Source: Simmondsia chinensis
Lineage: Eukaryota; Streptophyta; Magnoliopsida; Caryophyllales; Simmondsiaceae
Direction of reading: 5' to 3'
Length of the DNA: 64,000 nt
NCBI GenBank assembly: GCA_018398585.1
Contig: JAGTTD010000005.1
Location: forward strand, 8,301,355 to 8,365,354
This document shows positions 370 through 43,530 of this stretch, one piece after another (position 1 is the first letter of the stretch; each line of letters begins with the position of its first letter). A program made the position numbers and the translations under genes. The notes beneath the pieces were generated by a model that was not told the origin of the DNA, did not search any database, and saw only the letters and a program-made list of their open reading frames with translations.

Positions 370-496
370 CTAGACAAGAAACAATTAAAAATCAGAAACA
401 TGAAATCTGTTCGAAAGGAATGATAGAAGCCAAGACTGCTGTAAATAGCACCACAAAAACTATCCATACAAAGATCAGAAACTTTATGTTTGTCAC

Positions 497-3400
497 CTGT
501 CCATATTGCTGATGAATGTGATCTTGAGGATGAACAAACGGCATTCCAGGACGTTGAAATGGAAACTGGGAAGAATGCAGATATATTGCAGAAGCAGAGC
601 GTGCACCAACATGATTGGGACCATATGCAGCCATTGCAGTCTCTGGATGGCCATATCCTATAGTTGCAGAACTGGACGGAGAAGCCCATGGCCCAGGTAG
701 ATGTTGAGGAATGGGCTGTGGGTGCTCAGTAGGAATATGAGGCCCATGAGTTGGTGCAAGTTGCGGAAATTCAGTGTTGTAATTTACAACAGGGGTGTAC
801 ATAGGTTGGATGGTGTATGGACCCGCATTAAATCCAAACCCAGGATCAAACCTTTGCATATACCTGCAATGAATTCATTCACAAAGTTAGGTATGGAAGG
901 TAGAAACAATCTCTGCTCTATTTTTGAGGAATGTTCGTTGCACATAAGACTGAATATTGAACCATTCAGAGACAGCATATTAACTTCCAAAAATGCGAAA
1001 ACAGTTTCCATCTTTATGATTAATGAAAATTTGGCAAAAGCATTTCAGAATCAAGCCAAAGAACAAATAAGGCTAAAAAGCATTTCCAAAGAACAAGAGC
1101 TAAGAGTAAGAAAGACTATAAAATACTGTAATAACACAAGCAGCAATCAAACCAAAGAAAAATAAGGCTTAAGCATTTCTAGAGAACAAGAGCTAGACTG
1201 AAAAGAACAATAAAATAATTTACTAACACAAACAGCAGTGAAGTCATACACACTCCAGATGACCACATCAGAACTGTTATGCTCAACACAAAATTCATCC
1301 TTCACTAATCATGAATAAGGCTACTTATTCTCCTACGCACGTACATTGATGACCCCAATCAATAATGGGCTGCAGATAAGTGAGGGAGGCAGAAAGGGAG
1401 AGCATGTGAGACTACCAGTGGGATGGGGAAGAATCCAAAAGACAAGTGGACAGAACTGCAACAAGAAAGCAGCAAAAAACAGCCACAACTATATAACAAG
1501 AAATGGATGGACAGGATACCTGTCATAGCTCCTGTCATAGTCAGGATCCTTGCGGTCAATGTCATGGTCCCTAAAGATAGCCACCTTATTACTGTGGTTG
1601 TGTCTGTTCACAGGGTCCTTCTCTACCCTACCTCTAGCTGACCTACTGCTACCTGAAGACGAATCAATTATACCACGGCCAATGCTCAATTGAGAAACCC
1701 CAGGAGCAGGTCTCTCCTGTGACTTTGGCATGACCACAGAACTATGCCGCAAATTATCTTGCTTCTTAGCTTCACTCTCTGGTTTGGGACCAGAACCATG
1801 ATGATTAGTAGAGTTGAAAATCCTTGCACGAGCCTTGTTGTATTCCTCTTTCCTCTCCTCCACACTTTTGGAATTATTCATCTTTGCAGAACTGGAAGGA
1901 TTGCTAGCAACAGGAGAATGTTTATGCGGTCGCTGTTTGATTGCAAACATGACAACACCGCTATCTTCTTGAGGCAAATTTACAGGTATATCTGCAAGGC
2001 GAATACGTGGGAGCCGGCACTCGGTTGAAGTTTTACGAACAATTATTCTAGAGCCAGATCCATCAGGGAGATTATTGTCTAATAAGACCATGGACTGCAG
2101 GAAGTAATGCTGAGCCACACGGTGTGCAGCCAATCGTAAATAGGAAGTGGGCAGCTGCTGAAACTCCATCTGATCTCGCGTGGGATCACGAATGAATTGT
2201 AGAACATCTTGTTCCATCCGTAAAACTGAAAATGCAAAGCATCATGGGGTAAATAAATTTTAAATGACAAAACAGTATGGAAGAAAGGTAACGAAAAAAG
2301 CACACAAGTCTACTGATAACTGAGACAGAAAATGCAGAGGCAAACTCCATGACATATAAACCTTCCTCCAACATACAGCTCAAGTAGAGAAATCATCAAG
2401 CACAGCTCACTTTACTCTCATGTTTGATGTTTGATAATAACTTATGTTAAATGTTACTTAATACATCAATACCCCCCGCTGCATAAGTTAAGACAATAAA
2501 TAGCCATAGCCAAGCTGAATTCTCCACATTAAATATCTTTGATAAAGGTCATCCAAATTCATGTCCAATCTTAACTTTTGTTGAATTATTCTTCATACCA
2601 ATCGGTAATTAATTATTTCTTTCATAAGCTGAAGCACCCCACACGCCTTGGGTGAAAGTCATTCAAATACAAGGAAGTTGGTTCCCGAAATCTAAGCAGT
2701 CAATAACTTACACTGAAGAGTAGTTGGTTTTTGACAGAAAATATAAGATGTGTCGTCCAAAAAGCAAGATTTGCTATATGGGATGTGAAAAACGCATTTT
2801 AAAAATCAATACAACCAAACACATCATCCTATTTCATTCATGCTCCGTGATTTTAAGCCTGTGGTATCAAAACGACACCTATTGATATGCCATGTAATTA
2901 ACATTCACATGTCTTCTAACATTTAAAACAATGCCATGCCATTAAACTCTTTTGCCACATCATCATGCCAGCCGCCAAGTCATCATGTGGGATGTACACA
3001 TCAACACTGGTTGTCACGTCATCACGCTGGTAGCCGGCAACATACCTGAGGCCCGTCTTATTCCTTTTCAAAAAAATGTCAATCTTTCTCCCAAACATAT
3101 TACTCTTCTTATGTATATTGTCAACATGTTTCCTTTCTTGGTCTTTGTTTTCAAACATAATGCCTCATTAGATATTTCTGTTTAAATGATCAATAGCTTT
3201 TGCCTTGTTCTAGCAACAGCAACATACCAATGCCCCAAGGACTCCCACCTAAGCAAGGTCCGCGCCGGGGGGGGGGGGGGGGAGGATTTCCCCCTTCAGG
3301 GTATTATCCCTGAAGAGAGGCTATTTCCGAGTGCCCTCAACCTAAGGGTGAGGATTTCTCAAGAGATCACCCATCCTGGTACTGCTCAGTGTATAAAAAA

Positions 3401-6400
3401 GCGCGCCTAGGCATTGAGGCGCACCTCCATCGCCTCAGGCAAGGCAACTTCAGTGAGGCGCGCCTTTTGTTTTTTGGGTATATTTTGCCTTAAATTTTAC
3501 ATATTATTATATTATGTGTGTTTTTGTTGTGTTACATAATTTTTGTAAAAAAGTTTACATTGATATATTTACAATTTTTGTAAAAAAGCTTATGTTGATA
3601 TGTATAATACAACACCTTTTGATGAATATCAATATTTTTTAGTGGTATTTTTCTTAAGCACTATATAGATTTTTAATTAGAGTTGTTATATTAAATAATT
3701 AATTAATTTTTTAGCTTATGTTCATAAAATATTTTATAAATATAGAATATGAATGCAAATTACGAAACCGTGCGCCTCACTTCGCTAAGGCACGCGCCTT
3801 CGCCTTGCGCCTAGGCATTAGGACCCCCTATCACCTCAGTGCGCCTTGCGCCTTTTTATACATTGGTATTGCTCTCGGCCAAGTACGCTTAACTTCGGAG
3901 TTCTAATGGGATCCGATGACGACGTGTTGGTACCCTCTTTGGTGCCTTGTTCTAGCACACAAAACAAATTATTGATAGTTCATCCAAGATTTGAATGGGG
4001 TGTAAGAAAAGATGGCTCTACTAAACAAGCGCCAATCAATTTTTTGTTTTCTACCGAAAACAAGAGCGCACACAAACAAATTAAAAGAACACACTCATTA
4101 CCTAAAAGCATGGACCCGGAAACAAAACAAAACATAGATCAAAACACATATACAATGAAAAGCGAGCACGGTTACAACCTAAAAGCAAGCAGGCAAGCGT
4201 GCATACATTAATGGATGCTAAATTCAACATCAAATACTTAAAACTCTGGAAAGGCAGAGGAGAGAGTAAGGGGCATATATAAATCGAGCCAAGCCTAAGC
4301 TTAATAGCCGTAAGGCTCAACTTGTCAACATTTTCTCAGATTGAAGGTTATCGAACCTGGAGACTTCGAGCACCTGCATGGCTCATCGTGAATCTAACCT
4401 CAGAAGATTTGGTCCAAGTTTGGCTTGCTTATGCTCATTTAGATTAAAGATAAGCTCATCTAGGCTTATTTAGACTAGAGTTGGGCTCCTTCCAGATCAA
4501 ACTTTTGGCTTGTTTGGGCACATTTCAGCTCATAATTTAGATCAATACTGGTTCATTTAGAATAATTTAGGCTCGTCAGCCACCAAGCCTGAGCTTTACA
4601 AGGCTCAAGTTTGTCTTGCTTAGCTAAATGAGCCAAATCGACTAGGCTTGAGCTCAAAAAAGCAAAGCCTCTCAAGATCAATAACAAGCCGGATCATGAA
4701 GGCAGACAAGCTGCCTTGGCTTATTTACAAACCTAGGGAGAACAAAGGACATCCCCACCTACATTTGCTCATTTTGCATGTACACAGACACAAATTTAAG
4801 AAACATTTTCTCGATACTAGTCAAATGTCCAACCAGACATGTATATGCCTATCTGCATTTATTTTGATTTGGGTTTTATCTTGCACAACCCACTCTTTTG
4901 GATAAGCAGCTCGAGAGTAGGGGATTTGAACATGTCTAGGGCTTCAACCTATCTCCCCGGATCTTCCCCATAAGTAAAGCGTATTATGACAATGAGCACA
5001 AGTTGGTAAATGAGAAAGTGACATCCAGGTCTAGGCAATAAACATTCATGACATCCAACCCTAGCCAGCTCATCTATTACAGAGTGCGTATGCACCATGG
5101 CAAATAAACACCCTCCAATATTCTCAGTAGCGGTTTCCTTTTTCCACAGTTCACTCAAAACCTTCGAAGCCCGTACTGTAGTTACAAGAAACTCCTAAAA
5201 TACTAACATTTCACACTTCAGCATTTCACAGTCAAATTCACGTTTCCAATGCGTATCAAACTCAATGGAAACACGTTCAAACAATCATGGAATCATTTTG
5301 ATAAGAAGATACTTATTACATTATTTGTTAGCTAATTATATCACTCGATTTCAAAGAATGATTAAAGTGTGTGGACATATTGAAGTCAATGTTCTAGATC
5401 TCATTCATTTGAGTGCTTAATTTCTTGGTTATTACTTAATATGGGTTTTGTTTTAAAATTTATGCTTTAACAACTCAACTGATAACATTTCATTACTTTT
5501 TCTTTTATATCTAATCTATAGTAATATAACTACTTCCTCCACACTCCCAAACTTAGAAACTTCTATGACTTTCTGCTCCCTCATTCCAGCTTCCATTTCC
5601 ACTCCCGCCCCTGCTTCATGCAACTATAGCCCATACAACTTTCTAGCATCCGCATTTTTCACCAATAGGCCTCTCCAAAAACCAGTAGATCAGAATAATC
5701 GCACTAAGATCCCCAGACTAATCCTTACCATCCAGAAGATCATATTTACAGTGAACTCAGACAAGCTCAGCACAAAATGCATTTGAACAACAAAAGTAAT
5801 CGAAACCGACAAATACTTACAGAAAACTTGTCACTTAGGTACCTAGAGGTTTGGGCATTTATCATATGGGTACCCCGGCATTTCAATATATATAAGAAGA
5901 TGCCCTGAGATTTCAAAAATTTATCATTTAGGAACTCTATATCGAATTTTGGAAAATGACACCTAATTAATAAAATTTTGAAACTTTAGGATACGTGAGT
6001 GATAAAATCTTTAAACTTCAAGATAACTCATTATATATATTAAAACGTCAGGTCACTTAGAAGATAAATCCTCAAACCTCATGGTACCTAAGTGATAAAG
6101 TCCTATACTTAATCCGCAAAAACTCGTGAGGGTTATGTAAAGAATCACGAAGGAGCTCATCAACCTGATTAATTGCATCCTCATACAATCCCAAAGCCAA
6201 GTTTTCGAAGCTGGAAAACTCCCACGTTATGCCTGTTTTGTGTTCGTTATTGGAGCTAAATCGCTTATCGAACTGAGTTTGAGTAGGGGGTGCTCGACTC
6301 GTTAACGTTCACAAAAAGTTTGCTAAAGGCTCATTAAGTCTTATTAAAAGCTCGTCAAGAACTCGTGAGGCCTTCTCAACAGTTAAGATTAGCTCAACAA

Positions 6401-8825: not shown

Positions 8826-11800
8826 ATGGCGGAAGAAAATACAAATGAAATCATTGCACCGAGTGTTGAATCAAGGGGTGTTCCAGATGTGAACTCACCT
8901 TATTACTTACACCCTTCCGATCATCCAGGTCTCGTTTTTGTACAAGACATTTTAACGGGTCCTAATTTTCCGGCCTGGAGGCGTTCTATTTTTAAAGTTC
9001 TTAAGGCTAAAAGAAAACTCGGGTTTCTTGATGGAACCATTGTCAAACCGGATGAGTCTTCACCGGATTTTGAAAATTGGAGCGCTTGTGACTCCATGGT
9101 CTCTTCGTGGCTCACCAATTCTGTTTCTAAGGAAATCAATGCTAGTACAGCGTATTTTGAAACCTCGCGTGACATTTGGTTAGATCTAAATGAGCGTTTC
9201 TCTCAAGGGAACACTCCTCGTCTCTATGAAATCAAACGCGAAATTTCACTTTTAAAACAAAAAAATAAGTCAATTTTTGACTATTTCACAAAATTAAGGG
9301 CTCTATGGGATGAGCTTTACACTCTAGTAGCCATTCTTCCGTGTACGTGTGGACCGGGTCAGGCTTTTGCGGCCATACGAGACATGGAGAGGTTACTAGA
9401 TTTTCTAATGGGTTTAGACCCATCTTTTTCTACTGTGAGGTCTCAGTTGATGAATTCGAAACCCTTACCCTCGGTAGCTAGTGCCTATTCAACACTTTGT
9501 CAAGAAGAAAAACAACAAAGTGTTGCATCCGGTAGCGTTGTCATACCCGAGGCTGCTGCCCTCGTTGCTAAAGGGACTAATATGAATTTTGGGGGTGGTT
9601 CGTCATCAGTAAACGGACCACAACCCAAACGCAATAATCGTCCAGTTTGTTCTTATTGTAAGAAGCAGGGACATACACGAGACAGGTGCTTTCAGCTCAT
9701 TGGTTACCCACCGGGATGGACGCAGCCACGCCGCAGTAACGGGAAGCCCGCTGCGGCTGCAACGCAACAGGCTCCCGACACCGCAGACCAGCAGCAGCCG
9801 CTGTTGCTGCCAGCACCGGGAGACCAACAGGGCAGAGGTCATGATGCAAGCCCGGTTGGTGGTCTTTCAGCAACACAATATCAACAATTGTTGGGTCTAC
9901 TCAACACAGGAAGTAGTGCCCCTTGCGTTAACTTAACAGGTCAGGATTCGTTTGGTAATAATTGTTGGATTATTGATACGGGTGCAACGGACCATATGGT
10001 GTCATCCGATTTTCTTTTACTTGATAGAAGGGTTAATACCGAGATTCGTCCCGTTAAATTGCCTAACGGCACTTGTTTACCGGTCACACACGTCGGGCGT
10101 GCCAAGGTCACGGACGACATCACACTTGAGAACGTGTTACAAATTCCGGGTTTTCATTGCAATATGCTATCAATGAGCAAGTTAACTAGAGATATAAATT
10201 GTGCATTAACATTTTTCAAAACATTTTGTGTGATACAGGACTTACCATCGAGGAGGCTGATTGGAGCGGGTAAAGAACGAGATGGGCTATACATGATGGA
10301 AAGCGTTGTTGTTCCGAAGTCCGCTCAAGTTGTTGGGAGTGCTAATAACGGAATATTGTGGCATCGTTGGTTGGGTCATGTTCCGTTTAATAAATTGTCT
10401 AGTCTTTCCGGTTTGAACATTGGTGTTGTTTTGGATAATGTTTGTGACTCGTGTCATCGAGCTAAACAAACTCAGTTGCCTTTCCCAATTTCTGTTAGTA
10501 GATCTGTTGCTTGTTTTGATTTGCTTCATGTTGACATTTGGGGCCCATAGCGAACATTGTCAATGACAGGAGCTCGTTTTTTTCTCACTATCGTTGATGA
10601 TTATAGTAGATGTACTTGGATCTATTTGATGCGTGACAAGTCTCAGTCACACAATTTACTCATGAATTTTTGTGAAATGGTACAAACTCAGTACAATTCA
10701 CGGGTTAAGGAAGTTCGTAGTGATAATGGTGCGGAGTTTCTTTTTGGACCATTACTTGATTTTTATGCAGGAAGGGGCATACAAGTGCAAAATTCTTGCA
10801 ATGATACACCTCAACAGAATGGGGTAGCGGAGAGAAAGCATTGTCATCTTCTCGAAGCGGCTCGAGCCCTTAGATTTGAAGCAGGTCTTCCCGTTCAATT
10901 TTGGGGAGAATGCGTGTTGACAGCGGCCTATCTCATCAATCTCATGCCCACTCCCCGTCTACAAAACAAGAGCCCATATAAAGTACTACTTGGTAAAATT
11001 CCCTCATATGCAGATTTACGTGTTTTTGGTTCCTTGTGTTATGTTCATAATAAGGATCGTAGCAAAGATAAGTTCGGAAGTCGAGCGATTCGTGGTGTTT
11101 TTGTTGGTCATCCTCATGGCAAAAAGGGGTACAAAGTGTATGACTTAGACAACAAAAAGATTGTAATTTCACGTGATGTAATTTTTCACGAAAATGTCTT
11201 CCCATTTGTTGAAGAGATGAAAGACAAAGGGTCACATGACGGTGTGTTTGATTTTATACGTTACATTGACGAGGGGGGTGTGGCACAAAGACGGAGCATG
11301 GAGCCCGTAAGGGGTCCAGCAGCACCGTCAGGTGACGGTGCTGCAGAGCCTGACCGAACACTGTTCGGTCAAAACAGTGACCGAACAGTTCTCGGTCAGC
11401 CAAGGGAGAGGGAGGATGTGGTTGGTGAAGCGGGGAGGCCGATCCGTGCTCGTACCATGCCTAAAAAATATCGAGATTATGTGGTTGATGTTCCACCTTC
11501 TATAGCCCAGTCTCATGATACCCCTTCATCGGCTAACTCAGGTACGGTTTATCCTATTTCAAATTATGTTTCTAATGCACAATTTACTAACTCACACGCT
11601 AATTTGCTACAAGCCATCACATCGTGTGATGAGCCAAAGAACTTTGCACAGGCGGTCAAGTCACCTTATTGGAGAGAAGCAATGGAAAAGGAGATTTCGG
11701 CGTTAGAATGAAACAAGACGTGGACATTAGAGGAATTGCCCCCGGGAAAGCGAGCAATAGACTCGAAATGGGTTTATAAAATCAAATGTGAATCTGACGG

Positions 11801-13166
11801 AAGCATTGAGAGGTATAAGGCAAGGCTAGTTGCCAAAGGTTATACCCAGGTAGAGGGCATAGATTATCATGATACTTTTGCTCCCGTTGCTAAATTGGTT
11901 ACCGTTCGTTGTGTACTTGCAGTTGCGGCAGCAAGGAATTGGATAACACACCAATTAGATGTGAATAATGCGTTCCTTCATGGTGACCTCGATGAGGAGG
12001 TCTACATGAAATTACTGCAAGGTTTTTAAAGACAACATGCCGGTAAAGTTTGTCGTTTACGAAAATCGCTATATGGTTTAAAACAAGCCTCACGTAATTG
12101 GAATCAGAAATTCACTAACTCGCTCACTGAAATGGGTTTTGTCCAATCGAAGTCCAATTATTTGCTTTTCACTTATACCAAGGGGACTGTATATACTGCT
12201 ATCCTAGTGTATGTTGATGATGTTGTAATTACCGGGAACAATTTGAGTCATATTGAAGAGGTAAAGTCAAACCTTAATGTCTCTTTTGGCATTAAGGATT
12301 TGGGTTCTGTCAAGTATTTCCTTGGGATAGAGGTGGCACGCTCTCCAAAGGGGTTAATTTTGAGTCAACGAAAGTATGCACTCGACATCTTGAGTGAAAC
12401 CGGGCTAATAGGTGGGAAACCAGTTACTACACCAATTGTTCAAAATCACCATTTGAGTGATGAAGTGGGGGAGTTAGTTAAGGATCCAAGTCAATACAGA
12501 AGACTCGTAGGGAGACTTCTTTATCTCACCATTACCCGTTCTGACATTTGTTATGCCGTTAGCATACTTAGTCAGTTTATGCATAATCCCCGGGTTCCGC
12601 ATCTCGAAGCCGCCTTTCGAGTACTTCGATATATCAAGGGGACACCGGGTCAAGGAATTTTTCTTCCACATGACACTGATTTTAACATTCGTGCATATTG
12701 TGATGTTGATTAGGCAGGTTGTCCTATTAGCAGACGTTCTACTACAGGGTTCGTTGTTTTCTTGGGAGGAGCTCCCATATCATGGGGTTCTAAGAAACAA
12801 TCAGTTGTTTCCCGTTCCTCTGCCGAAGCAGAATACCGTGCAATGGCCACTGTTACTAGCGAACTGGTTTGGTTGAGACGTTTACTTGTCGATCTTGCAG
12901 TTGATGTTCAAAAGCCCGCCATTTTATTCTGTGACAATCAAGCGGCACTTCACATAGCCTCGAATCCAGTTTTCCACGAAAGGACCAAAAATATAGAGAT
13001 CGACTGTCATTTTGTTCGAGAGAAGTTGATGACCAAAGAAATCTCGACTTCATTCGTGCGGTCATCAGGACAAGTGGCTGATATCTTCACTAAAGGGCTT
13101 TCTTTTCCATCCTTTTCTTCTCTCCTTTTCAAGTTGGGCATTGTAAATTTACATGCTCCAACTTGA
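8826..13166 (+). pseudogene. copia gag-pol polyprotein with four in-frame stop codons
   Basis: One reading frame runs from ATG 8826 to the stop at 13166, about 1447 codons, with no frameshift. Stops interrupt it at 10548 (TAG), 11709 (TGA), 12027 (TAA) and 12711 (TAG). Domains in order: gag; zinc knuckle CSYCKKQGHTRDRC near 9650; protease WIIDTGATDHM near 9966; GAG-pre-integrase HHCC region near 10360-10480; integrase with SDNGAEF near 10726 and TPQQNGVAERKH near 10806; reverse transcriptase with YVDD near 12210; RNase H with AEYRAMA near 12830 and FCDNQAALH near 12928. The TGA at 11709 could be a CpG decay product of CGA and the TAG at 12711 of TGG. Catalytic motifs are otherwise kept. It is a retroelement, not a host gene. 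Confidence 0.93.
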
Positions 13167-20355: not shown

Positions 20356-22322
20356 TTATAAGGTAAGTCTCTACTAGACTTTGCCATCACTTATGAGTTA
20401 ACAGTGGCCAACACCTTCTTCAAAAAGTGTGAAGACCACATCATCACGTATTGGAAAGATGGAGCAGAGACCCAGATTGACTACATACTACTAAGGAAGA
20501 GAATTCAAAAAGATTGCAAGGATTGCAAGGTTATCCCTAGGGAAGATCTCTCAACACAACACGGGGTAGTGTATGCTGAGGTCAAGGCCCAAAGAAGGGG
20601 CAAGAAAACCAGGAAACCATCACAGCCATGCATGTGTTTGAGGGATCGGAAGGGGGAAAAGGCTCGAGCTTTTAAGGAAAGAGCCGTGCCTGAGCTTGGA
20701 GGGGAGTGTGAGGGAGATGTAAATCTTTTGTGGAACCAAGTAGCCCAAAATATCATAGATGTGGCACGCGAAGTCCTAGGCGTATCAAGGGGTCAAGCAC
20801 CAAACAACAGAGAGACTTGGTGGTGGTGTAGGGAGGTCCAAGAAAGGATTAAAGAGAAATGAGCTTGCTTCAAAGAGTGGGATCAAAGTAGAGATGGGGA
20901 AAAGAGACAACAGTACAAACAAGCCAAGAACGAAGCTAAGATAGCAGTAACAAACAGACAATCTAAAGCCTTCGAGGACTTCTATAAAAGGCTAGACACA
21001 GTTGAGGGAGTTAGGGATCTCTATAGAATTGCAAAAGCAAGAGAGAGGAGGACTAGAGACCTGAATCAAGTAAAGGTGCATAAAGGGGGCGGATGGACGA
21101 GTGCTCATGGACGAGCAACAAATTAAATCTAGGTGGAAATCCTATTTTCATGATCTGTTCAATGAAAATGGAGATACGGATGCATCCCCAGGAGAACTAC
21201 AAGCACCACCAGAGCAAAGGACCGACTACAACTGCACAATAATTAGACCCGAGGAAGTTAGGGAAGAGCTAAAGAAGATGGACAGGGATAAAGCAGTTGG
21301 CCCAGATGAAATACCCATTGAGGCATGAAAATGTAATGGAGAAATGGGTGTTAGATGACTAACCAAATTATTCAACCAAATCCTCCAAGGGAAGAAGATG
21401 CCTGATGAATGGCGGAAGAGCACATTAGTTCCCGTGTATAAGAATAAAGGCAACATTCAGAGTTGTGTCAACAACACAGGAATCAAACTAATGAGCCACA
21501 CCCTGAAGCTTTGGGAGCGGGTCATAGAAAGAAGACTGCGACAAAGAGCAAGGGTTTTAGAGAATCAGTTTGGATTTATGCCAGGAAGGTCGATAACAGA
21601 AGCCATCCATCTCTTGAGGAGGTTAATAGAGTACTATAGAGATAGATAAAAGGACCTCCATATGGGTTTCATTGATTTGGAGAAAGCATATAATAGAGTA
21701 CTGAGACAACTCCTATGGAGGGTCTTGGAGGGAAAAGACATCCCCCAGCCCTATATACGAGTTATCAAAGACATGTATGAAGACGCCCCAACTAATGTGT
21801 GCATAACGGAAGGGGATACAAATGCTTTTCCCATATGAGGTACACTAAGGACCAGCCTTGAACCCCTTTCTGTTCATTTTAGTTATGGACGAGCTCACAA
21901 GGCACATCCAAGGGGACGTGTCTTGGAGCATGCTCTTCGCGGATGATATAGTCCTAGTGGGAGAATCTAGGGAGGAGGCGAATGAGAAACTTGAACTTTG
22001 GAGGATGGCCTTAGAATCGAAATGTCTAAGACGTAGTAGATTTAAGACTGAGTATATGGAACTCAAGTTCTTCACCTCTACCATGCTAAGCACATAAGTC
22101 GTCAAGATTGGAATTGAGTGTATACCACAGAAAGCTTGCTTTAAATACTTGGACTCCATGGTTCAACAAGACGGCGAAGTGGATGCAGATGTCAATAATA
22201 GGATTAAAGTGGGGTGGCATAAATGGAGGATGGCCTCTCCTATACTGTGCGATATGAAGTTCCCGTTAATGTTAAAGGGTAAATATTATAAGACAGTAGT
22301 GAGACTGGCTATGTCCTATGGG

Positions 22323-22822
22323 ACAGAGTGCTGGCTAGTTAAATGTCATCACAAGCAGAAGCTGAAGGTGGGCGAGATGAGGATGTTGAGATGGATGTAT
22401 GGATATACAAGGAAGGTCAGGATATGAAATGACGTTATAAGAAGTAAATTAGGTGTCTCCTTGATAGAGGATAAGAAGAGGGAGCAACGCTTGTGGTGGT
22501 TTAGGTATGCTAGGAGGAGACCCATCGCTGTCCCTTTCAGGAGATGCGAACAGCTCCATATTACAGATGGGAACAGAGTGCTGGCTAGTTAAATGTCATC
22601 ACACGCAGAAGCTGAAGGTGGGCGAGATGAGGATGTAGAGATGGATGTATGGATATACAAGGAAGGTCAGGATATGAAATGACGTTATAAGAAGTAAATT
22701 AGGTGTCTCCTTGATAGAGGATAAGAAGAGGGAGCAACGCCTGTGGTGGTTTAGGTATGCTAGGAGGAGACCCATCGCTGTCCCTTTCAGGAGATGCGAA
22801 CAGCTCCATATTACAGATGGGA
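22323..22822 (+). repeat. 250-bp tandem duplication inside the RTE C-terminus
   Basis: Two adjacent 250-bp units (22323-22572 and 22573-22822) begin ACAGAGTGCTGGCTAG and differ at about three positions by eye. The junction has ATGGGA on both sides, consistent with slippage or unequal exchange at short homology. Confidence 0.88.
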
Positions 22823-23099
22823 AAAGAGGGAGAGGCCGGCCAAAGAAGAGTTGGGAAGAGACGATTCAACGGGACCTTATCTATCTCAACCTAAATGAAG
22901 AGATGGCCCTAGATAGAGCTTAGTGGAGGATTAGTATAAATGTGATCGATATAGCGGTGTAGGAGCATCGACCACTCGTAGGATGGTTCTAATACCATGA
23001 GGATGCTTGTATGCCTAGTTGTATAGATGCAGTCATGGCATCTATTGGTCGCTTAGTGCTCCTGGGGTTGGATGGAGACTATTCGACATATGAGAAGAG

Positions 23100-23440
23100 A
23101 GGAAGAGGCCGGCCAAAGAAGAGTTGTATGGAGAACCTCCACTGCCCTTGTAAGGAGATGCAAACAACTCTATAATACAGATGGGAACAGAGGAAGAGGA
23201 TGGCTTAAGAAGAGTTGGATGAAGACAATTCGATAGGACCTCGCCTTCCTCAACCTAAATAAAGAGATAGCCCTAGATAGAGCTCAGTCGAGGATTAGTA
23301 TAGAGGTAATCAATTTAGCAGTGTAGGAGCATCGACCACCCGTAAGCTAGTTCTAGTACCACGAGGCTGCTTGTATGCTTGTTTGTATATATGCAATACT
23401 GGCTTACGTTGGTCGCTTAGTGCTCTAGGATTTGTTACCT
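23100..23440 (+). repeat. second, diverged copy of the RTE 3' end
   Basis: The segment repeats the region 22790-23060: GAGGCCGGCCAAAGAAGAGTT, the CTCAACCTAAA motif and GGAGCATCGACCAC, all with many changes. The LINE therefore carries two successive 3' coding and UTR copies. Confidence 0.65.
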
Positions 23441-23471
23441 TGGGGTGTAGTGATATTCGCTGCTGATACAC

Positions 23472-23496
23472 ACTCTCTCTCTCTCCCTCTCTCTCT
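23472..23496 (+). repeat. (CT)n microsatellite
   Basis: A CT run with one CC interruption in the 3' UTR region of the LINE. Confidence 0.8.
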
Positions 23497-23795
23497 AGAC
23501 AATCTGGATGCTCTACTCTCTCTATATGTTTGCATTTTGTTATATGTATGATCTTTCCTCTACATGCTTCTTTGCTTTTACTGTTTGCTCTGGCTACTAT
23601 GCTTCCATGCGTACATGCTTACTTATTTATTTACTTACATGCTTACATGCTTCACATGATCTCTATACTTCACATGTTTTTCGTTTAGGCTCTTCATAAA
23701 TATCAATTATTAGGTTGGAGATCCTCGAAAATAGTCTCTCGTTAGAGTCTCACCCTAATGGGGTAAGGCGACATACATACTTGAAGCACTAGGAC

Positions 23796-23817
23796 TGTTG
23801 TTGTTGTTGTTGTTGTT
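23796..23817 (+). repeat. (GTT)n tail of the RTE LINE
   Basis: Seven GTT units directly follow the LINE 3' UTR. Plant RTE elements commonly end in TTG repeats rather than poly-A. Confidence 0.85.
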
Positions 23818-23880
23818 ATTGTATCACCTTATTTAAATTTGTTATCATTTTTTGAATCTCAATCTTACTAGCTGAACATA

Positions 23881-39896: not shown

Positions 39897-42800
39897 ATGG
39901 CGTCTGCTAGGGTCGATATTGAAAGGTTTGATGGTAGGAATTATTTCAATCTATGGAAACTAAAAATGAAAGCAATCCTTATGGAACAAGGTGTTGGAAC
40001 TGCACTTTTGCCTGAAAAGATCAACCCACTTATCTAACTAAAAAGGAGAAATTAGAAATTGAACATAAAGCTTATGCTTCTTTATTACTTAGTCCTGATA
40101 ATTCAGTACTTAATCGGATTCGCTCTGAAAAGACTGTAGCAGATATCTGGGCTAAGTTAGAGGAAATTTATAAGTCTGAGTCGTTGTCCAATAGAATGCT
40201 GTGCATGGAAGCCCTTTTTCACCTTTAAGGTGAGTGAGACTAAACCCCTAGAGGACTATATAGATGAGTTCCATAAAATCTGTCAAGATTTGGAAAACGT
40301 TAAAGTTACTGTTGCAGATGAATTGTTGGCTGTATTGTTGCTATGTGCCTTACCTAAATATCTTAGGTCCTTTAAAGACACACTAAGTTATGGACGTGAC
40401 ATTGTAGCACTAAAAGACGTTACAAAGGCCCTAAGATCCAAGATCTTAGAACTTAGGAAGGAAGGGAAGTACCCACCAACCAGTAACAGTGGGGAAGGAC
40501 TGACAGTTAGGGACAGGGTCAGTTAGGGTTAGAGGGTCAAATGGCGTTGACTTCACCCTAGAAGGAGTTAGGCATGTGCCTGAACTTAGAAGGAACCTGA
40601 TCTCTCTAGGACAATTAGATCTAGCTGGTATGACCTTAAAGGCACAACAGGAGGTAATGAAGGTCCTTAAGGGTTCCCTTGTAATGCTAAGTGGGGAGGT
40701 CAAGAATGGTCTATATATGCTTAGAGGTGACGTAGTTCCTGCTGGCTGCTTTGTCGCAGAAAAAGCCGACCTCACTAACCTTTGGCACAAAAGATTAGGA
40801 CATGTTTTAGAGAGAGGCCTAAATGAATTGAACAAAAGGGGGCTGTTGGGGGGTGGTTATGTATCTAAACCTAATTTCTGTGAGTCATGCATATTTGGAA
40901 AACATCATAAACTATATTTTAAATCTGAAATCCATATAACTAAGTCACCGGTAGATTACATTCACTCTGACCTGTGGGGACCAGCAAGGGTACCCACTTT
41001 AGGTGGAGCATACTACTTCCTATCTATGGTAGATGACTTTTCTAGGAAGGTTTGGGTTTGCTTACTTAAAACAAAAGATGAATGTTTTAATGCTTTTGTT
41101 AGGTGGAAGAACCTTATAGAAAATCAAACATGTAGGAAGATTAAGGTGCTTAGAACTGATAATGGACTCGAATATATGAACTCTGAATTTGATAGTTTAT
41201 GTGCTCAAACTGGCATTAAAAGACACAGCACCGTTAGGAAAACACCCCAACAAAATGGACTTGCTGAGAGAATGAATCGTACGCTCTCAGATAGGGTAAG
41301 ATGCATGTTATTTGCATCAGGACTTGGTAAGAACTTTTGGGGGGGAGGCTGTAGTTACTGCATATTATCTAATCAATAGAACTCCCTCCTCTGCAATTGA
41401 CTTTATAACCCCTGAACAAAAATAGACAGGAAAAACAAGCGACTATTCTATTTTAAAAGTTTTTGGATGTGCTGCGTATGCACATCAATCAGAAGGAAAT
41501 CTTGAACTTAGGGCTGTAAAAGGTGTTTTTCTAGGCTATCCGGATGGTGTAAAGGGGTATAGGGTGGGTGTTAGGGATGGAAACAGGACCAAAATTATAA
41601 TTAGTAGAGATGTGACCTTTAATGAAGAGGAAATGCCCTACTTGGAGAGAACAGCAGCCACTTCCTCCAACCCTAGGAAGTTTGATCCTGAACTCTATGA
41701 GTTCGAGATTAGCCCACCAGAGCCTACATACTGGGAAAACTAGACCTTAGATCCTGAAGAAGAGGTAACTGACAGTGCTGAAGGGAGCACTGAACCTCAA
41801 GAAACCATTGAACATATGGACCTATCAAACTACCAACTAGCAAGGGATAGGGAGAGGAGAGAAACTAGGGCACCAGTTAGGTTTGGGACTGCTAATTGTA
41901 TTGCATATGCCCTAAACACTGCCCTAGAGTATGTAGTGTCAGAACCTCTCACCTATTCATAAGCCATTAGAGGGGCTGCCTCTGAATAGTGGCTCAAAGC
42001 CATGATAGAGGAAATGGAGAGCCTAAAAAGGAACAAAACTTGGGTTTTGGTTCCTCAACCTATGGGTAGGAAGTTGGTAGGTTCTAAGTGGATCTATAAG
42101 GTAAAAGAACCTGATACATCATCTGGACAGCTAAGGTGCAAGGCTAGACTAGTTACAAAAGGTTTTTCACAAAAGGAAGGGGTATATTATAATGAGATTT
42201 TTTCTCCCGTTGTTAAACACACAACTATAAGAATACTTATGGCACTAATGGCTAAGTTTAGCCTATTTCTAGAACAAATGGATGTTACAACAGCTTTCCT
42301 TCATGGTGAGCTGGATGAAGAAATTTTCATGGCCCAACCTAAGGGTTTTATTGAACCAAACTGTGAAAATCATGTTTGTCTACTTAAGAGGTCTTTGTAG
42401 GGCCTTAAACAATCCCCTAGGCAGTGGTACAAACGTTTTGACCAATTTATGAGAAGTAGGGGCTTTAGTAGATCAATACATGACATTTGTTTTTACTTTA
42501 AACATGCTGATACTGTTGATGCATTGTATTTACTGATCTATGTTGACGATATGCTCCTAGGTAGTAGATCTATGAACTATATTAATGATTTAAAGCTAAT
42601 TCTTTCTGCTGAGTTTGACATGAAAGATCTAGGAAAGGCCAAGAAAATACTTGGTATGGAAATCACTAGGGGCATTGCTGCTAGAACAGTGCATCTATCA
42701 CAACAAAGGTATTTGGAAAAGGTATTATATAGGTTTAACATGTCTGATTGTAAACCTGTGAAGTTGCCCTTAGCAAGTCAGTACAAATACTCAGTTGAAC

Positions 42801-43530
42801 AGTGTCCTTCGAATGAAAATGATAAGAAACAGATGGAAAGAGTCCCATATGCTAATGTTATAGGTTCTTTAATGTATGCTATGACTTGTACGCGTTCAGA
42901 CTTAGCGTTCCCTTTAAATGTTTTGTCTAGGTTTATGAGTAACCCAGGAAAGGAACATTGGGATGGGGTTAAGTGGCTGTTAAGGTACATTAAACAGACC
43001 TATAAACTGGGACTTACTTTTGGTAGGTCAGAAACAGACCTTAGGCTGATAGGTTACACTGATTCTGATTTTGGGGGAGACTTAGATAAAAGAAGGTCAA
43101 CTAGTGCTTACCTTTATACTCTAAATGGTGGAGCCATCTGTTGGAAGTCTAAGTTGCAGCCTATGACAGCTCTGTCAACAATAGAGGCTGAATTCGAGGC
43201 CCTAACAGAAGCCATCAAAGAGGCTAGCTGGTTGAGGGGCCTGCTGTCAGAAATTAACCTTGATTATGGGCCTCCCTTGCTGTTTTCAGATAGTCAATAT
43301 GCCCTTGCTTTGTGTAAGAACCCTGTTTTTCATGATAGGACTAAACACTTAGCTATTAAGAGGAATTTTGTTAACGATATGCTTGAAAAGAACACTGTTG
43401 AACTGAGAAAAATTTGTGACTTTGGATATGGGCACGAAAATTATGACTTTGGACAAGTTACTCAAATGTATTAACTTGGTTCAAAGTGATTGGGATCATG
43501 GATGACCAATCAAGTGAGTTTGCTCCTTAT
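39897..43530 (+). pseudogene. copia gag-pol lacking zinc knuckle and protease
   Basis: Gag starts at ATG 39897 (MASARVDIERFDGRNYFNLW) and is frameshifted near 40030 and 40228. Near 40505-40540 the gag frame (GEGLTVRDR) runs into GSNGVDFTLEGVRHVPELRR, so the zinc knuckle and the protease DSG site are deleted. Next come GAG-pre-integrase (LWHKRLGHV near 40786) and integrase (HSDLWGP near 40968, RTDNGLEY near 41153, TPQQNGLAERMN near 41246). A frameshift in a G run near 41340 and stops at about 41424, 41741, 41961, 41988 and 42398 follow. Reverse transcriptase has YVDDMLLGS near 42540, and RNase H has STIEAEFEALTEAI near 43177 and SDSQYALALCKN near 43288. Confidence 0.9.

What the first reader, a model, noticed from the sequence alone, without database searches (positions are those of the whole stretch)
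3216..3942. A plant SINE with a 5S rRNA head
Seen: about 100 nt of 5S-like sequence, with internal promoter regions A and C, heads a roughly 240-bp element (after removing a nested MITE) bounded by a perfect 15-bp duplication TGCCTTGTTCTAGCA and ending in a TTG-type tail. Known: most plant SINEs are tRNA-derived, and 5S-derived SINEs (SINE3 class) are best known in animals. Inference: this is a 5S-derived SINE family of this plant lineage, distinct from Cassandra LTR elements.
Basis: partly seen in the sequence, partly recalled or inferred. Interest (0 to 1): 0.86.

Follow-up and report, generated by a model that had tools for sequence, protein, structure and literature searches.

The report
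Plant SINE with 5S rRNA head
This plant genome carries thousands of copies of a short copy-and-paste DNA parasite whose front half comes from the plant's own 5S ribosomal RNA gene and whose back half is the tail of a larger mobile element, a combination known from animals but not one we found described in plants.

Summary
Window 3216-3942, sense strand minus, is a SINE: 240 bp without a nested 479-bp hAT-like MITE, flanked by a perfect 15-bp duplication. It belongs to a large dispersed family in the 831-Mb host genome: 6,627 matches to a SINE-specific 35-nt 5' end and 2,847 to an older 5S/LINE junction, reversed patterns 0. The head matches the host's own 5S gene (consensus A 83/94, B 84/93). 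An older subfamily runs 5S nt 12-119, to the 5S 3' terminus (100/108), and then switches directly into the next part. That part, about 125 nt, is the 3' end of RTE-type LINEs of the same genome (80-87% identical, five of five complete ends read). Copies have their own 11-25 bp duplications in 64 of 83 cases, against 10 of 2,367 mismatched pairs; 5'-truncated copies have them too, as target-primed reverse transcription predicts. It is not Cassandra. The window copy is probably dead: the MITE splits the internal promoter. The tail is T-rich, not (TTG)n. My nine paper searches found no 5S-headed plant SINE. Transcription and host species are untested.

The parts
3201..3215 (.). target site duplication, copy 1 (TGCCTTGTTCTAGCA)
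   Evidence: perfect 15-nt repeat with 3943-3957
3943..3957 (.). target site duplication, copy 2
3933..3942 (-). SINE 5' end, 10 nt that are not 5S (CCAAAGAGGG)
   Evidence: present unchanged in 37 of 39 head-selected copies (biased by selection); part of the pattern used for the genome count
3874..3932 (-). 5S-derived head, first piece (SINE nt 11-69), with box A (3881-3895) and intermediate element (3875-3880), box limits recalled
   Evidence: ungapped match to own 5S gene nt 12 onwards; Rfam 5S_rRNA
3352..3386 (-). 5S-derived head, second piece (SINE nt 70-104), with box C core AGGATGGGTG (3368-3377)
   Evidence: box C motif as
3216..3351 (-). LINE-derived body and 3' end (SINE nt 105-240)
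   Evidence: the consensus of this part matches the 3' ends of RTE-type LINEs of the same genome at 80-87%
3387..3865 (.). nested hAT-like MITE, 479 bp, inserted between the intermediate element and box C
   Evidence: 8-bp duplication 3379-3386 / 3866-3873 with one mismatch; inverted termini; hAT assignment by these two features, rule recalled
20362..23820 (+). decayed RTE-type LINE with RT fragments and a (TTG)n end; a diverged relative of the SINE's partner
   Evidence: RVT_1 in three of five fragments scanned, all below the Pfam cut-off; 3' piece 23712-23778 70% identical over 67 columns to the SINE body; body score 45 reached by 0 of 2000 shuffles

Best explanation
A SINE of the SINE3 kind (5S rRNA head), born in this plant's lineage and moved by an RTE-type LINE. 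Shown: the head is derived from a 5S rRNA gene like the host's; an older subfamily is colinear with 5S to its 3' terminus and then continues directly as the last ~125 nt of RTE-type LINEs of the same genome; copies are dispersed, mostly carry 11-25 bp duplications and are often 5'-truncated. Inferred: RNA polymerase III transcribes it from the 5S internal promoter (boxes A, IE, C) to the T-run at its 3' end; the LINE's reverse transcriptase recognises the shared 3' end and copies it into the genome by target-primed reverse transcription. Inferred birth: while copying LINE RNA, the reverse transcriptase jumped to the 3' end of 5S rRNA. Later subfamilies lost about 8 nt at the junction and expanded. 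The window copy is a relic with a split promoter.
For: 6,627 and 2,847 matches against 0 for reversed patterns. 5S identity: consensus A 83/94, B 84/93, C 100/108, all ungapped. Ten of 10 full-headed copies that I chose reach Rfam's 5S gathering score (56.5-76.3 bits), and ARAGORN finds no tRNA in those 10 loci. LINE 3' ends match the body at 80-87% over 118-129 columns in five of five complete ends read; in four of them the scores are 126-166, against 27-50 for the antisense strand (the 50 is a nearby SINE end). Duplications: 30 of 39, 23 of 29, 11 of 15 copies, against 4 of 958, 3 of 703, 3 of 706 mismatched pairs. 10 of 29 body-selected copies begin after consensus nt 13, 8 of them with a duplication score of 12 or more. 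A precedes the 5' end in 36 of 39 copies, which puts the start 11 nt before the 5S match, as in the 5S gene. No T-run of 3 or more lies inside the three consensuses before their end. No LTR-sized repeats in the flanks of 38 loci.
Against: No transcription or mobility data. LINE clade rests on the (TTG)n end rule and RVT_1 fragments below the cut-off, not on a tree; the endonuclease-region fragment gave no meaningful Pfam hit and one unnamed homologue. LINE tail identity is 80-87%, so the exact partner may be another copy or extinct. The origin of the 10-12 nt 5' end is unexplained. Subfamily C, read as older, has the host's present AAGATGGGTG in box C while A and B have AGGATGGGTG, which is not a simple ladder, and by body identity to the LINEs C is no closer than A or B. 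A T-run of 4 or more at the 3' end is found in only 17 of 29 and 16 of 39 copies. 19 of 83 copies show no convincing duplication.
Confidence: 0.94

Rival explanations
1. It is part of, or derived from, a Cassandra TRIM: a 5S-bearing LTR (solo LTR) rather than a SINE.
For: Cassandra is the known plant element with a 5S-like promoter, 5S lying mid-LTR. In 15 of 38 loci of about 3 kb a second SINE-like piece lies near the main one, in 9 on the same strand.
Against: In all nine same-strand cases the main copy has its own 13-22 nt duplication at its ends, and no repeat over 42 nt lies in the two flanks of any of the 38, so these are neighbours, not LTR pairs (in L001 the second piece is the other half of the MITE-split window copy). 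The 5S part is at the 5' end; copies are 5'-truncated; the 3' half is a LINE 3' end; subfamily C reaches the 5S 3' terminus. The head could still have passed through a Cassandra copy long ago: Cassandra copies of this genome were not looked for or aligned.
Confidence: 0.02
2. A one-off 5S/LINE chimera or a 5S pseudogene in which chance flanks look like duplications.
For: Single 5S retro-copies and template-switch chimeras exist (recalled).
Against: Thousands of copies with the same junctions and individual duplications far above mismatched-pair controls.
Confidence: 0.01
3. The 3' half is not from an RTE LINE; the LINEs' 3' ends only share a widespread plant retroposon 3' motif such as the Angio-domain, and the true helper is another LINE.
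For: The 3' end resembles the Angio-domain as I recall it; SINE tails are T-rich while the LINEs end in (TTG)n; identity is 80-87%.
Against: The match spans ~125 nt, begins at the 5S junction, ends at the LINE's own 3' end, and is seen in all five complete LINE ends read.
Confidence: 0.12

Closest known systems
SINE3 (5S-headed SINEs of vertebrates and some insects; e.g. zebrafish SINE3, AmnSINE1, HaSE3)
   Same: 5S-derived head, LINE-derived 3' part, many copies (passages; target site duplications as a SINE hallmark)
   Different: Plant host; head like the host plant's 5S gene; tail from a plant LINE. The SINE3 hosts named in the passages read are vertebrates and some insects; 5S-related SINEs are also reported from a fungus (start of abstract)
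HaSE3 (moth) and Ped-1 (springhare)
   Same: 5S head joined to an RTE-clade 3' end (HaSE3; Ped-1 with BovB)
   Different: Another kingdom, so presumably an independent birth; their sequences were not compared here
TS SINE of tobacco and other plant SINEs
   Same: Tobacco TS shares ~100 nt of 3' end with an RTE LINE, both ending in TTG repeats
   Different: Plant SINEs are given as tRNA-derived; here the head is 5S and the tail T-rich
Cassandra TRIM
   Same: 5S rRNA-derived promoter in a plant retroelement
   Different: [quoted passage not shown] here no LTRs, long duplications, LINE tail

Membership tests
SINE3 (5S-headed SINE) | 5S rRNA-derived 5' head | tested here: met
   ungapped match to own 5S genes; 10 of 10 chosen full-headed copies over Rfam gathering score; the window copy itself is below it
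SINE3 (5S-headed SINE) | 3' part shared with a LINE of the same genome | tested here: met
   five of five complete LINE ends read, 80-87% over 118-129 columns; a sixth end was cut off at the edge of the stretch but begins to match
SINE3 (5S-headed SINE) | dispersed copies with own target site duplications | tested here: met
   64 of 83 copies, against 10 of 2,367 mismatched pairs; one duplication is shared by L009 and L012, probably a segmental duplicate
SINE3 (5S-headed SINE) | RNA polymerase III transcription | not testable with these tools
   promoter boxes present in consensus (box limits partly recalled); no expression data
Cassandra TRIM | LTRs and 5-bp duplications | tested here: not met
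   no repeat over 42 nt between the flanks of 38 loci; duplications of 11-25 bp in 64 of 83 copies
tRNA-derived plant SINE (SINE2) | tRNA-derived head | tested here: not met
   ARAGORN finds no tRNA gene in 10 loci (a strict gene finder, weak against decayed tRNAs); the head is 5S
Angio-domain SINE superfamily | 37-bp conserved 3' Angio-domain | not tested
   the domain's letters were not available (paper not held); resemblance is recalled only
RTE-clade LINE as partner | RTE clade in an RT tree | not tested
   indirect only: (TTG)n end (rule) and RVT_1 fragments below the Pfam cut-off

The most novel reading that the evidence does not exclude
This is the first 5S rRNA-headed SINE of a flowering plant: an independent, recently active SINE3 lineage with about 9,400 pattern matches, born by a jump of a LINE reverse transcriptase from LINE RNA to the very 3' end of 5S rRNA, with the birth junction still readable in an old subfamily. 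It would show that plants do make the kind of element that has been proposed, without any plant example in the passages I read, as the source of Cassandra's 5S promoter.
Probability: 0.65. Interest if true: 0.8.

Novelty: new variant of a known kind. Interest (0 to 1): 0.73.

Why it matters
[quoted passage not shown] A plant SINE3 shows that the combination arose in plants too, again with an RTE-type tail as in HaSE3 and Ped-1. The old subfamily preserves the fusion point at the 5S 3' terminus, which makes the template-jump model of SINE birth directly readable. Cassandra is speculated to have arisen by a SINE3 insertion into an LTR; a plant SINE3 makes that idea testable by comparing 5S variants. 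Plant SINE finders that look for tRNA-type boxes A and B (SINE-Finder inside AnnoSINE), or that drop candidates very close to known RNAs, could overlook such elements.

Tried and rejected
Terminal helix: the SINE 5' end looked complementary to the junction in a fold, but shuffled 5' ends reach the score in 182 of 20,000 (subfamily C) and 1,157 of 20,000 (B) trials, and other windows of the element score as high; dropped as unproven. Fold z-scores were weak (-0.84, -0.44).

Copies outside this genome: no match to three patterns in viral contigs; two matches in prokaryote contigs look like chance, with no 5S sequence seen in the 150 bases on either side; a protein search with one translated consensus frame found nothing. 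Slower decay of promoter boxes was not used as evidence because the sample was chosen by head similarity.

Not done: Cassandra copies of this genome were not looked for; tRNA-headed SINEs with the same tail were not searched for beyond the 30 body-matched loci; LINE clade was not tested with a tree.
Full report
WHAT IS THERE. The interval 3216-3942 is bounded by a perfect 15-nt direct repeat, TGCCTTGTTCTAGCA, at 3201-3215 and 3943-3957. The 5S-like sequence reads on the minus strand. Inside it sits a 479-bp MITE (3387-3865) with hAT-like features: CAGTGTATAAAAA.. and CAATGTATAAAAA.. termini and an 8-bp duplication with one mismatch (GTACTGCT / GTATTGCT). Taking out the MITE and one 8-bp copy in a script gives a 240-bp element with an uninterrupted 5S-like stretch. 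The MITE lies between the intermediate element and box C, so the internal promoter of this copy is split. No other copy was found in the window by blastn. The window copy is 92% identical to consensus A over 225 columns.

A LARGE FAMILY. The host genome is held as G000 (831,394,711 bases, 35 contigs). A search with the head gave 40 scored matches of 1,861 candidates, at 94-100% identity. A SINE-specific pattern of the 5' end (35 places, up to 3 mismatches) is found 3,321 + 3,306 = 6,627 times; the reversed pattern is found 0 times. A second pattern across the junction of the older subfamily is found 1,426 + 1,421 = 2,847 times, reversed 0. The consensuses of A and B fit the first pattern and miss the second by 15-16 places, and that of C fits the second and misses the first by 4, so the two counts should hardly overlap. 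They omit 5'-truncated and strongly decayed copies.

HEAD. Of 47 scored 5S matches (51,838 candidates), 46 lie on C8, most of them in arrays. Against one of these genes, consensus A matches 5S nt 12-105 in 83 of 94 positions without gaps, consensus B 84 of 93, consensus C 5S nt 12-119 in 100 of 108, and the window copy 79 of 94. The 20 array genes fetched first are identical; that sequence and four others compared all carry CCCATTAG, as the SINE consensuses do. Of ten full-headed copies chosen by me, ten reach Rfam's 5S gathering score (56.5-76.3 bits) and none of the ten loci gives a tRNA. An A precedes CCAAAGAGGG in 36 of 39 copies. It makes the element start 11 nt before the 5S match, the same distance as in the 5S gene; this fits Pol III initiation (inference).

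TAIL. Plant RTE LINEs end in (TTG)n or (TTGATG)n and tobacco TS SINE shares its 3' end with one (Ohshima 2013, PMC3747384; passages read). The window holds a decayed LINE with reverse transcriptase fragments and a (TTG)n end near 23,800; its 3' region resembles the SINE body (score 45; 0 of 2,000 shuffles reach it). In the genome, 150 of 6,364 candidates for that reverse transcriptase were scored. I fetched six 3' regions next to long open frames. Five contain a complete end; all five carry the SINE body as their last ~125 nt, at 80-87% identity over 118-129 columns, followed by TTG-type repeats, regular in some and broken in others. The sixth was cut off just where the match begins. The SINE copies themselves end in T-rich tails, TTGCT(T)n or TTCCT(T)n, though a run of four or more T was found in only 17 of 29 and 16 of 39.

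JUNCTION. One fetched LINE region (L104) also held an older SINE. It runs along 5S to the last 5S nucleotide and one T and then continues with the LINE tail. A search with it gave 40 scored of 927 candidates; the 14 best after L104 itself were fetched and, with L104, define subfamily C. Its consensus reads ..GTGTTGCACCCCT|CAGGTTGGGGG.., where the left part is the 5S 3' terminus and the right part is LINE. Subfamilies A and B lack about 8 nt there. I infer that the SINE was born when reverse transcription switched from LINE RNA to the 3' end of 5S rRNA. Against a simple ladder from C to A to B: C shares box C AAGATGGGTG with four of five host 5S sequences compared, while A and B have AGGATGGGTG, the canonical form (Maiwald 2024, PMC10853983; passages read); and in the body C is not closer to the LINEs than A or B.

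INSERTION MECHANISM. Duplications with score 9 or more: 30 of 39 head-selected copies (4 of 958 mismatched pairs), 23 of 29 body-selected copies (3 of 703; one of 30 dropped because it was already in the first sample), 11 of 15 subfamily C copies (3 of 706). L009 and L012 share a duplication and are probably one insertion. Nine, six and four copies respectively gave none at that score. Ten of the 29 body-selected copies begin after consensus nt 13, and eight of these have a duplication score of at least 12. Twenty-six of the 29 retain at least part of the 5S head; three begin at the 5S end or in the body; no other head was seen. This is what target-primed reverse transcription leaves. In 38 loci of about 3 kb the flanks of the SINE share no repeat longer than 42 nt; 15 hold a second SINE-like piece, 9 on the same strand, but in these nine the main copy has its own duplication of 13-22 nt, so they are not LTR pairs. 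The 19 near-full-length body-selected copies, one of them A-like, are 94.5-99.6% identical to consensus B, which suggests recent activity, but the sample was chosen for similarity.

COMPARISON WITH WHAT IS KNOWN. Nine full-text searches turned up no 5S-headed SINE of a plant in titles, abstract starts or the passages that I read. Only open-licence papers are held; Repbase was not available, and the Angio-domain and SINEBase papers are not held. [quoted passage not shown] passages). AnnoSINE, a plant SINE annotator, has a 5S class in its scheme; the passages I saw name no plant SINE in it (PMC8825457). SINE3 is described from vertebrates and some insects, HaSE3 with an RTE partner (PMC7245038; passages), and Ped-1 of springhare joins 5S to BovB (PMC3747384; table passage). 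A 2024 paper repeats the speculation that Cassandra arose from a SINE3 insertion into an LTR (PMC10886601; passages). So the element works like, and by its tested features belongs with, SINE3; the plant host and the plant LINE tail are what is new. The resemblance of its 3' end to the Angio-domain is recalled, not tested.

LIMITS. Pol III transcription, mobility and the LINE's clade are inferred. The host species was not identified. Distribution beyond this genome could not be tested with the collections at hand.

Noticed in passing
window 20362-23820: Decayed RTE-type LINE with an internal ~250-bp tandem duplication (about 22330-22580 and 22580-22830, seen by eye) and a (TTG)n end.
   Followed up: partly
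L098: A SINE copy inserted into what looks like another copy of the same GCGCC-type MITE that interrupts the window SINE: its duplication tagaatatgaatgcaa is MITE sequence (by eye).
   Followed up: partly
L029-L048, L120-L123: Four of five host 5S sequences compared carry AAGATGGGTG in box C (the fifth ACGATGGGTG) instead of the canonical AGGATGGGTG; SINE subfamily C mirrors it, A and B do not, reminiscent of Cassandra's promoter mirroring.
   Followed up: partly
window 392-2217, minus strand: R3H/SUZ-domain protein gene exons; the 1489-2217 piece is at most 71% identical to any of the 120 listed homologues (of 768), so the host is not close to a well-sampled species; the SINE lies about 1 kb beyond that exon.
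   Followed up: partly
L001, L008, L074, L079, L082, L087, L094, L097, L099 and six others: 15 of 38 three-kilobase loci hold a second SINE-like piece (L001 is the MITE-split window copy itself), suggesting clustering of SINEs or of the LINE tails that share their body.
   Followed up: partly
window 8826-12713 and 40576-43474: Open frames that look like pieces of Copia-type retrotransposons (by eye).
   Followed up: no
L049, L066, L018, L024: Tails of several copies show partial repeats such as ATGTTCCT or TATG, perhaps slippage by the reverse transcriptase at the 3' end.
   Followed up: no
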